Of a DNA stretch of 64,000 nucleotides, positions 19,722 to 21,654 are shown in pieces. The notes beneath the pieces were generated by a model that did not search any database, was not told the DNA's origin, and worked only from the letters and a program-made list of their open reading frames with translations. This stretch comes from Bacillus sp. 491mf (lineage in GTDB: Bacteria > Bacillota > Bacilli > Bacillales > Bacillaceae_G). Location: NCBI RefSeq assembly GCF_900112415.1, contig NZ_FOLV01000016.1, forward strand, positions 1 to 64,000. Reading direction: 5' to 3'. How positions within the stretch are numbered: position 1 is the stretch's first letter; every line of letters begins with the position of its first letter. The translations under genes were made by a program, and so were the position numbers.

Positions 19722-20846
19722 ATGAAAACATTATTTAAGCAAGCGACTGTTTACCCTATTACTTCCTCTAAATTTAAGGGGGATGTATTAGTAGAAAACA
19801 ACAAAATTGTTGCATTAGAACGATTTATTGAGTCTAGCAAGGATATGACCATTATTGATGCACGAGGTCTTCATCTTCTTCCAGGCTTTATTGATGTGCA
19901 TACACATCTCGGTTTATATGATGAAGGAACTGGATGGGCTGGAAATGATGCAAATGAAACAGCAGAAGTCCTAACCCCTCATATTCGTTCTTTAGACGGC
20001 ATTCATCCTTTTGATGTTGCTTTTCAAGATGCCCGGCAAAGCGGTATTACAACCGTACATGTCATGCCTGGAAGCCAAAATGTAATTGGCGGAACAACAT
20101 GCGTCCTCAAAACAGCAGGAACTAGTATCGATCATATGGTCATTCAAGAACCTGCTGGTTTAAAAATTGCGTTTGGAGAAAATCCAAAACGTATGCATAG
20201 CAACGGAAACAAAGAATCTATTACCCGTATGGGGATTATGGGAATGCTTCGAGAAGCATTTTATGAAGCAAAACACTATGGGAATGATACCGACTTTCGA
20301 ATGATTCCTATTATACAAGCGCTTCGCCGTGAAATTCCTATACGCGCCCACGCTCACCGTGCCGATGATATTTTAAGCGCTCTTCGCTTTGCTAAAGAAT
20401 TTAATCTCGATTTACGTATTGAACATTGCACAGAAGGACACCTTATTGCTGATAAATTAGCAGGTCACGATTTAAAAGTATCTGTCGGACCCACATTAAC
20501 ACGCCGTTCAAAGATTGAAATTAAAAACAAATCTTGGCAAACATATCATACTTTATCTACTCACGGGATTGAAGTTTCTATTACGACAGACCACCCCTAT
20601 ACACCCATTCAATATTTAAATATTTGCGCGGCTATCGCCGTCCGAGAAGGATTAGATGAACATAAAGCTCTAGAAGGAATTACAATTATACCAGCTCGCA
20701 ATATACGACTAGAAAAGAAAATCGGTAGCATAGAGCCTGAAAAAGACGCTGATCTTGTCCTATGGACTCACCATCCTTTTCACTATTTAGCCAAGCCTGT
20801 ATTAACAATGATAGATGGAAAAATTATCTACACAAAAAATTCATAA
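19722..20846 (+). CDS. Metal-dependent amidohydrolase
   Basis: A 374-residue amidohydrolase-superfamily enzyme, imidazolonepropionase-related in general appearance. The first metal ligands are His60 and His62 in DVHTHLG. Further ligand histidines appear as HAHRADD and RIEHCTEG, and the last aspartate as TTDHPY. The C-terminal beta-sandwich segment IEPEKDADLVLW is typical. No signal peptide, so cytosolic. The substrate cannot be named; neighbours give no pathway. AGAGGTT lies eight bases before the ATG. Confidence 0.85.
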   Translation: MKTLFKQATVYPITSSKFKGDVLVENNKIVALERFIESSKDMTIIDARGLHLLPGFIDVHTHLGLYDEGTGWAGNDANETAEVLTPHIRSLDGIHPFDVAFQDARQSGITTVHVMPGSQNVIGGTTCVLKTAGTSIDHMVIQEPAGLKIAFGENPKRMHSNGNKESITRMGIMGMLREAFYEAKHYGNDTDFRMIPIIQALRREIPIRAHAHRADDILSALRFAKEFNLDLRIEHCTEGHLIADKLAGHDLKVSVGPTLTRRSKIEIKNKSWQTYHTLSTHGIEVSITTDHPYTPIQYLNICAAIAVREGLDEHKALEGITIIPARNIRLEKKIGSIEPEKDADLVLWTHHPFHYLAKPVLTMIDGKIIYTKNS

Positions 20847-20862
20847 AAACTAGTTTATTTTT

Positions 20863-20893
20863 TTGACTAGATGAAGTATTATACGATTATAAA
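20863..20893 (+). promoter_or_regulatory. Putative sigma-A promoter of the tRNA-like RNA
   Basis: TTGACT at 20863-20868 is followed 18-19 bases later by TTATAA/TATAAA. It lies about 55 bp before the tRNA-like fold and directly after the amidohydrolase stop. Confidence 0.5.
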
Positions 20894-20945
20894 CTGAATG
20901 AAACCATAATCAATTTGTGTCGTGTTGAGTAATTTCAAATTGATG

Positions 20946-21017
20946 AATGGGGAAGGCAAATGGTGCGCCACCAGCATTATAGACTGGTTCTAGTGGGTTC
21001 GATTCCCACCCCGAAAT
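20946..21017 (+). ncRNA. tRNA-like RNA with degenerate acceptor stem
   Basis: A near-complete tRNA fold. The D arm is GGC/GCC with a nine-base loop containing GG (20955-20969). The anticodon arm CCAGC/ACTGG (four pairs plus C-A) has loop ATTATAG, putting TAT in the anticodon. The variable loop is five bases. The T arm is perfect, GTGGG-TTCGATT-CCCAC (20993-21009). The acceptor stem is poor (about four of seven pairs) and no CCA is encoded. A nine-base hairpin ATCAATTTG/CAAATTGAT precedes it. B. cereus is known to make a stationary-phase pseudo-tRNA called tRNA-Other that can be lysylated; this may be that gene, but I cannot confirm it from memory. A decayed tRNA gene is the alternative. Confidence 0.6.
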
Positions 21018-21061
21018 TTTTTAAAGTTTTATATAAAAATTTCGAGGGTGGGGTGTTTTTT
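21005..21061 (+). terminator. Terminator sharing its 5' arm with the tRNA-like RNA
   Basis: CCCACCCCGAAATTTTT pairs with AAAAATTTCG-GGGTGGG (about 17 pairs, one bulged A), followed by a T run. The left arm is the 3' half of the T stem and acceptor stem of the tRNA-like fold, so the two structures exclude each other. Confidence 0.8.
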
Positions 21062-21096
21062 GTTGTCATGCTGCCCTCTTTTTAGGAGGAGATAGT

Positions 21097-21654
21097 ATGT
21101 TAAAAAAACGTGACCTACATGACAGCCACGTTCTATATGATTTGATGATTCACCCTGATGTCTTCCCCTTTGTGCGTCAAAAGGCGTCTTCTTATGACGA
21201 ATTTTTGTTTTTGACAAAACAAACCGTTGAAGCGGAAGAGCGTGGAGAGTTAATTTCACGAACAATTGTTGATGAGTGGGGAAATCCAATCGGAACAATA
21301 ACCCTATTTGATATTCAAGAAAAAGCAGGCTTCCTTGGCACATGGCTTGGTAAACCATATCATGGAAAAGGTTATAATAAACCTGCAAAAGACGCTTTCT
21401 TTAGTGAACTTTTCTTTGAATTAGATATTGAGACTATTTTCATGCGAATTCGCAAATTAAATACTCGCTCTATTAAAGCTGCCGAAAAACTACCATACGT
21501 CAATCTAGCAAATGAAACACGTAGATGTGTATACGATCAAATTAACGCAAACGATGAAGTGTATAACTTATATGAAATTCCGAAAGATCAATACACACTA
21601 CACACAATGCGCGAAGCAACATTCCAAGACGCTCACCATTTAAAAGAAGCGTAA
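21097..21654 (+). CDS. GNAT acetyltransferase, RimJ/RimL type
   Basis: A 185-residue N-acetyltransferase. The acetyl-CoA loop is WLGKPYHGKGYNKPA near residues 88-102, followed by the SIKAAEKL helix typical of RimL-like enzymes. The family modifies protein N-termini or small amines; the substrate here is unknown. AGGAGGAG precedes the ATG. The start is only 36 bases after the terminator that overlaps the tRNA-like RNA, so read-through could control it. Confidence 0.85.
   Translation: MLKKRDLHDSHVLYDLMIHPDVFPFVRQKASSYDEFLFLTKQTVEAEERGELISRTIVDEWGNPIGTITLFDIQEKAGFLGTWLGKPYHGKGYNKPAKDAFFSELFFELDIETIFMRIRKLNTRSIKAAEKLPYVNLANETRRCVYDQINANDEVYNLYEIPKDQYTLHTMREATFQDAHHLKEA

What the first reader, a model, noticed from the sequence alone, without database searches (positions are those of the whole stretch)
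20863..21097. tRNA-like RNA whose 3' side is also a terminator arm, in front of an acetyltransferase gene
Seen: a promoter-like TTGACT/TATAAA, a nine-base hairpin, then a tRNA-like fold with perfect T arm, D arm, anticodon arm (TAT) and five-base variable loop, but a weak acceptor stem and no CCA. Its last 13 bases (21005-21017) are the left arm of a 17-pair terminator, so tRNA folding and termination exclude each other. Known: B. cereus has a stationary-phase pseudo-tRNA, tRNA-Other, that can be lysylated. Inference: this may be that gene, and folding could let transcription read into the GNAT gene 36 bp on.
Basis: partly seen in the sequence, partly recalled or inferred. Interest (0 to 1): 0.85.

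Follow-up and report, generated by a model that had tools for sequence, protein, structure and literature searches.

The report
tRNA-shaped switch before an acetyltransferase gene
The stretch of RNA just ahead of an acetyltransferase gene is shaped like a transfer RNA, is kept almost letter for letter in many Bacillus-like bacteria, and probably acts as a switch that opens or hides the gene's ribosome landing site; what it senses is unknown.

Summary
The tRNA-like fold is real and deeply conserved, but it is very unlikely to be tRNA-Other. A covariance model finds it in 225 of 299 genomes of one order (one copy each among the rows shown, except one genome with three) and in 34 of 398 of the class. 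A GNAT gene follows it in 108 of 108 loci reached through the RNA, and 44 of 44 loci reached through the GNAT carry it. D, anticodon-like and T arms covary in 87 distinct copies. The anticodon-like loop is free, no CCA follows, and no Rfam family reaches its cut-off on it.

What is conserved is a translation switch: the tRNA-like fold frees GAGGGUGG, which pairs with CUGCCCUC and releases the Shine-Dalgarno sequence. Predicted Shine-Dalgarno exposure is higher in that state in 122 of 126 leaders, beyond shuffled controls.

It works like the yjdF (azaaromatic) riboswitch without matching that family. Signal, expression and sign are untested. Best label: a tRNA-like orphan riboswitch candidate, undescribed in what I searched.

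The parts
20877..20882 (+). conserved -10-like box (GTATNAT, here TATTAT) with A/T tracts upstream; promoter class unknown
   Evidence: 71 of 99 distinct upstream regions have GTATNAT, shuffles mean 11.9, max 19; the -10 role is inferred
20909..20944 (+). 9-bp hairpin between promoter and element; not conserved
   Evidence: fold; 1 of 44 named relatives has a perfect hairpin of 8 bp or more there
20950..21013 (+). tRNA-like domain: 3-bp acceptor, invariant or nearly invariant AA junction, D arm, anticodon-like arm with free loop, 4-nt variable loop, canonical T arm; presumed sensor
   Evidence: in relatives
21013..21043 (+). P5: A/U-rich hairpin GAAAUUUUU / AAAAAUUUC directly after the acceptor strand; formed in both predicted states
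   Evidence: 1206 of 1235 cells paired, 7 of 10 pairs with changes on both sides
21005..21052 (+). OFF hairpin: T-stem 3' strand and acceptor strand pair with GAGGGUGG beyond P5 (17 pairs); followed here by UUUUUU, so possibly a terminator in this genome
   Evidence: 934 of 1000 cells paired; for the U-run
21044..21051 (+). GAGGGUGG (X box, anti-anti-SD): pairs with 21005-21012 (OFF) or with 21071-21078 (ON)
21071..21078 (+). CUGCCCUC (anti-SD): pairs with the SD (OFF) or with the X box (ON)
   Evidence: 848 of 955 cells paired with the X box, slid controls 50-59%; 516 of 598 cells paired with the SD
21084..21089 (+). Shine-Dalgarno AGGAGG
   Evidence: predicted unpaired 0.88 in the tRNA-like state, 0.08 otherwise
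21097..21654 (+). GNAT acetyltransferase (185 aa), the gene presumed to be controlled
   Evidence: PF13302, 45.7 bits

Best explanation
A cis-acting leader RNA that works as a translational switch, ON when its tRNA-like domain is folded. ON: cloverleaf-like fold plus P5 form; GAGGGUGG is free and pairs with CUGCCCUC; the Shine-Dalgarno sequence is exposed and GNAT is made. OFF: the T-stem 3' strand and acceptor strand pair with GAGGGUGG, and CUGCCCUC pairs with the Shine-Dalgarno sequence. In this window a U-run after the OFF hairpin may add a transcriptional layer. Something that stabilises the tRNA-like core sets the balance: most likely a small molecule bound in the core, as in yjdF, less likely a tRNA-binding protein or enzyme. 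Shown by computation: the fold and its covariation, linkage to GNAT, mutually exclusive pairings. Inferred: sign, translation as output, ligand.
For: Fold: 99.5% of cells paired and 26 two-sided changes in 87 distinct domains; 0 of 500 shuffles reach this. Linkage: GNAT downstream in 108 of 108 loci found with the RNA model (10 of these repeat named loci); element upstream in 44 of 44 GNAT loci; of 74 genomes without the element 70 have no GNAT match at E 1e-25. More conserved than the protein: the 20-mer GGGAAGGCAAATGGTGCGCC is identical in 44 of 44 named loci whose GNATs are 62-78% identical to the window's. Not coding: the anticodon-like arm changes length by single bases. Switch: Shine-Dalgarno predicted more exposed in the tRNA-like state in 122 of 126 leaders, mean 0.58 against 0.25; in 44 non-redundant leaders the mean gain is 0.32 against 0.096 in shuffles, highest of 30 shuffled sets 0.153. 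Pairings: X box with anti-SD 848 of 955 cells, slid 50-59%; P5 covaries. Individual leaders keep both pairings when letters change: L044, L167, L168 have GGGGCAG and CUGCCCC; L110 has GAGGGUG and CACCCUC. L090 lacks the anti-SD and its G-run itself seems to be the ribosome site, which gives the same sign.
Against: No expression, probing or binding data. The acceptor stem never varies, so it has no covariation support. Two-sided changes in X box/anti-SD (5 cells) are not above the slid controls (0-16 cells), so that helix rests on the share of cells paired and on single cases. 4 of 126 leaders show no predicted gain (L036, L088, L097, L129), and only 14 of 44 exceed 95% of their own shuffles. 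Some members have another or no X box (L129, L134, L135, L136, L141). 4 of 74 element-free genomes have the GNAT without the element. The leaders are related, so the counts are not independent. Secondary-structure energies ignore the tRNA tertiary core.
Confidence: 0.72

Rival explanations
1. Transcription attenuator: the hairpin 21005-21052 plus U-run is a terminator and the tRNA-like fold is an antiterminator.
For: In the window the hairpin is strong (17 pairs) and followed by GUGUUUUUU.
Against: A U-run of at least 6 T in 8 is found in 11 of 121 leaders assessed, while anti-SD and SD pairing is common to most. The simple terminator scan does not list this hairpin (its loop limit excludes it).
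Confidence: 0.12
2. tRNA mimic read by a protein or processing enzyme: the elbow is bound or cut by a tRNA enzyme (RNase P, RNase Z, TruB, TrmFO, Dus) or by the GNAT itself, and this sets GNAT expression.
For: Elbow letters (GG in the D loop, TTCGATT in the T loop) are invariant in 87 of 87 domains, as tRNA enzymes would require (general knowledge).
Against: 3-bp acceptor stem and no CCA make a poor substrate for RNase P or RNase Z (general knowledge). A GNAT without the element exists in 4 of 74 element-free genomes. No direct evidence.
Confidence: 0.15
3. tRNA-Other, the stationary-phase pseudo-tRNA of B. cereus.
Against: Different anticodon, neighbours and transcript layout; this element is tied to a GNAT in many genera.
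Confidence: 0.01
4. A decayed tRNA gene or an integration-site remnant.
For: tRNA-like with 3-bp acceptor and no CCA; the next-best matches of the model are true tRNAs (tRNA-Gly, tRNA-Met, tRNA-Sec).
Against: Conservation, covariation and fixed place before one gene; exact patterns not in viral contigs, no match in phages, one match in plasmids, on a 690-kb Cytobacillus replicon that also carries the GNAT.
Confidence: 0.01

Closest known systems
yjdF (azaaromatic) riboswitch, RF01764
   Same: tRNA-like fold in an mRNA leader with D-loop and T-loop equivalents; translational ON switch; the T-arm strand is what pairs with the ribosome site in the OFF state; single associated gene; natural ligand unknown (abstract and passages of PMC9142559; passages of PMC10987639 and PMC4793209).
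   Different: Does not match RF01764: not listed for the window at E up to 10 nor for ten relatives at E up to 0.5; the one RF01764 hit over cut-off in 20 genomes lies at another place than the element. The junction is 2-3 nt (AA or AAA) instead of a long purine-rich J1/2, the T loop is canonical, the gene is a GNAT, and the T strand acts through an extra X box/anti-SD relay instead of pairing directly with the ribosome site (except L090).
tRNA-Other of B. cereus ATCC 14579
   Same: Pseudo-tRNA inside longer RNAs (PMC3399842, parts 1-2 of 6 and passages).
   Different: Trp anticodon, other neighbours, studied as a regulatory RNA beside a genomic island; here a leader of a GNAT gene.
Guanidine-IV riboswitch and its Gd4v variant with GNAT genes
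   Same: Leader RNAs that control GNAT acetyltransferases; the Gd4v ligand is unknown (passages of PMC9788692).
   Different: Another RNA structure and class; control by transcription termination in that paper; no match in Rfam searches here.
T-box leaders
   Same: Leader RNA that switches an expression platform, with tRNA involved.
   Different: A T-box binds a tRNA; this leader is itself tRNA-like. No T-box match.

Membership tests
yjdF / azaaromatic riboswitch (RF01764) | match to the Rfam covariance model | tested here: not met
   (not listed); only hit over cut-off in 20 genomes (G070:C1:360993) is not the element (G070:C6:104861)
yjdF / azaaromatic riboswitch (RF01764) | T-arm strand complementary to the ribosome-binding site of the next gene | tested here: inconclusive
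   the T strand pairs with an X box that resembles the SD and controls it indirectly; direct only in L090
yjdF / azaaromatic riboswitch (RF01764) | binds azaaromatic compounds | not testable with these tools
   needs in-line probing
tRNA (RF00005) | score above the Rfam cut-off; 7-bp acceptor stem; 7-nt anticodon loop; CCA end | tested here: not met
   24.8 bits against 29; ARAGORN 0 in the window and 0 in 20 of 20 loci scanned; acceptor 3 bp, arm of 11-28 nt with free loop; no CCA
tRNA-Other | Trp anticodon; thioesterase ORF immediately upstream | tested here: not met
   with features; no sequence comparison was possible
riboswitch | conserved structured leader sensor that excludes an expression-platform pairing | tested here: met
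   (computational)
riboswitch | direct binding of a ligand that changes expression | not testable with these tools
   no ligand known
intrinsic terminator / attenuator | stable hairpin followed by a U-run, kept in relatives | tested here: not met
   the hairpin is kept (934 of 1000 cells); U-run in 11 of 121 leaders assessed, present in the window

The most novel reading that the evidence does not exclude
An undescribed orphan riboswitch class whose sensor is a true tRNA fold and which reads the state of the translation machinery (a core-binding antibiotic or metabolite, or free tRNA-binding enzymes or ribosomes), controlling a GNAT that acetylates an aminoacyl-tRNA, an aminoacyl-nucleotide or a translation inhibitor. 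The only hint for the last step is weak profile similarity of the GNAT to MccE.
Probability: 0.2. Interest if true: 0.92.

Novelty: new variant of a known kind. Interest (0 to 1): 0.78.

Why it matters
tRNA-like leaders as gene switches rest so far mainly on yjdF, whose tRNA likeness was inferred by scattering and probing and seen only in part in the crystal structure (passages). Here is a second, sequence-unrelated case with far closer tRNA likeness (canonical T loop, D-loop GG), deep covariation, one dedicated gene and many genera. It offers a direct test of how cells turn a tRNA fold into a sensor, and an orphan ligand to find. Knowing the signal would also name the function of a widespread acetyltransferase.

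Tried and rejected
Rejected: tRNA-Other (see above); decayed tRNA or integration site; small upstream ORF through the element (arm length changes by single bases); yjdF membership; a conserved terminator; defence gene (PADLOC, no match); the upstream 9-bp hairpin as a part.

Led nowhere: GNAT naming by NCBIfam (no family over cut-off) and by solved structures (single sequence: 3 weak matches; profile: 8gxk, 8gxf and MccE 3r95, best E 9e-6). Structure prediction of the GNAT never ran. Genomes of the window's own group: no whole genome is held, and I recognised no B. cereus-group organism among the 44 titles, so conservation of the U-run among close relatives was not tested. Two literature searches gave only papers that do not describe this element, as far as titles and abstract starts show. 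In one search the only listing, tmRNA 12.8 bits (cut-off 47) in L133, overlaps the element and is far below cut-off.

Searches behind 'not found in print': by words and by sequence strings; open-licence PMC papers only, so subscription papers are not covered.

Full report
What is there. The window holds at 20950-21013 a cloverleaf-like RNA: a 3-bp acceptor stem, AA junction, 3-bp D stem with the loop AAAUGGUGC, a 5-bp anticodon-like stem, a 4-nt variable loop and a T arm with the canonical loop UUCGAUU. tRNA programs do not accept it (ARAGORN 0; Rfam tRNA 24.8 bits under a cut-off of 29). No Rfam family reaches its cut-off in the window. In six relatives the one hit over cut-off, Bacillaceae-1, lies elsewhere in L044.

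How widespread. A search by the GNAT protein gave 44 loci. All 44 carry GGGAAGGCAAATGGTGCGCC 139-154 nt before the GNAT start. The record titles name Neobacillus, Mesobacillus, Metabacillus, Cytobacillus, Peribacillus, Lederbergia and unnamed Bacillus species; two titles name Pseudomonas and Chryseobacterium, which I take for mislabelled records (L014, L040). A covariance model of 24 of these 45 sequences (R1) gives one strong match in each of 10 genomes (92-106 bits); the next-best matches are at most 28 bits, and the four of them that I fetched are true tRNAs (Gly twice, Met, Sec). It matches 225 of 299 genomes drawn from the order of G001 (one genome, G083, has three matches on three contigs) and 34 of 398 of the class (the class sample includes genomes of the order sample). 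The window's own genome is not held.

Link to one gene. In 108 of 108 loci taken from the RNA matches a GNAT homologue follows on the same strand (68, of which 10 repeat named loci; 40). Not all 225 genomes were looked at. Of the 74 genomes of the order sample without the element, 4 have a GNAT match at E 1e-25 or better (51-59% identity), and their 350-nt upstream regions show no element by eye. Neighbouring genes differ: the amidohydrolase upstream in the window is found in 36 of 44 named loci, and the further neighbours in at most 4 (examples).

The fold is under selection as RNA. On 87 distinct domains (A4) the 16 pairs hold in 99.5% of cells; 7 pairs have changes on both sides, 26 cells in all, against 2.1 in shuffles; no slid version exceeds 54% paired. 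Two-sided changes occur in the D stem (1 pair), anticodon-like stem (4) and T stem (2). The acceptor stem shows none. The junction is AA in 85 and AAA in 2 of 87, and the variable loop has 5 forms. In contrast the anticodon-like arm runs from 11 to 28 nt. So the elbow and core are fixed and the 'anticodon' is not.

The switch. P5 (21013-21043) follows the acceptor strand without a gap and covaries (1206 of 1235 cells paired, 7 of 10 pairs with two-sided changes). Beyond it GAGGGUGG can pair back with the T-stem 3' strand and acceptor strand (934 of 1000 cells), or forward with CUGCCCUC (848 of 955; slid controls 50-59%); CUGCCCUC can pair with the Shine-Dalgarno sequence (516 of 598). These counts come from one MAFFT alignment of 126 distinct leaders. 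Two-sided changes in the forward helix (5 cells) do not exceed the slid controls (0-16), so I lean on the paired share and on single cases: L044, L167 and L168 have GGGGCAG with CUGCCCC, and L110 has GAGGGUG with CACCCUC.

Predicted effect. I folded all 126 leaders twice, once with acceptor, D and T stems forced, once with the 5' strands of acceptor and T stem kept unpaired. Shine-Dalgarno exposure is 0.58 against 0.25 on average, higher in the tRNA-like state in 122 of 126, by more than 0.2 in 72 and by more than 0.5 in 40. The window gives 0.88 against 0.08. The four without gain are L036, L088, L097 and L129. The states differ by 2.5 kcal/mol on average in favour of the unfolded one. With the linker shuffled, the mean gain in 44 non-redundant leaders falls from 0.32 to 0.096 (highest of 30 shuffled sets 0.153); 14 of 44 leaders exceed 95% of their own shuffles. 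Hence the sign: tRNA-like fold = gene on. In L090 the anti-SD is missing and the G-run after P5 sits 7 nt before the start codon, so the T strand would hide the ribosome site directly, with the same sign.

Terminator or not. The window's hairpin has 17 pairs and a U-run. A run of at least 6 T in 8 bases occurs in 11 of 121 leaders assessed (L077, L129, L134, L140, L141 not assessed). Transcription control may exist here, but is not the shared output.

Promoter. GTATNAT stands in 71 of 99 distinct upstream regions (113 of the 153 leaders then in hand were used) against 11.9 in shuffles; it follows phased A and T tracts and no clear TTGACA.

Relation to known systems. The closest is yjdF. Its abstract states that ligands stabilise a tRNA-like fold and outcompete a state in which the T-loop pairs with the Shine-Dalgarno element; a later crystal structure sees similar helix positions but no direct L2b-L4 contact in one species (passages). 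The element here does not match RF01764. So: works like yjdF, not shown to be a member. GNATs under other riboswitches are known (guanidine-IV and Gd4v, passages). tRNA-Other is a different locus, though I had no sequence of it to align.

What it senses is open. The most likely kind is a small molecule bound at the core (analogy to yjdF, inference). The GNAT belongs to Acetyltransf_3, with profile matches to RimJ/RimL-like chains and, more weakly, to MccE; this is a lead only. Confidence: cis-regulatory RNA with a tRNA-like fold about 0.9; translational ON switch as described 0.72; ligand class unknown.

Noticed in passing
window 20830-20882: Phased A and T tracts followed by GTATNAT before the leader are shared by many relatives, with no TTGACA; promoter class or activator unknown.
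   Followed up: partly
L090:1509-1564 and downstream: A short leader (96 nt to the start codon) without the anti-SD; the G-run after P5 seems to be the ribosome site itself.
   Followed up: partly
L129, L134, L135, L136, L141: Members with a standard or near-standard tRNA-like domain but another expression platform, without GAGGGUGG.
   Followed up: no
L117-L120: GNAT relatives (51-59% identity) whose leaders lack the element; whether another regulator replaces it was not studied.
   Followed up: no
genome G083: Three element matches on three contigs, in contrast to one per genome elsewhere; possibly a mixed assembly.
   Followed up: no
L121 (G070:C1:360993-361097): A true yjdF/azaaromatic riboswitch (97 bits) in a genome that also has the most divergent element fetched (60.9 bits, L134).
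   Followed up: no
L044:15323-15389 (-): Bacillaceae-1 RNA (RF01690, 79.7 bits).
   Followed up: no
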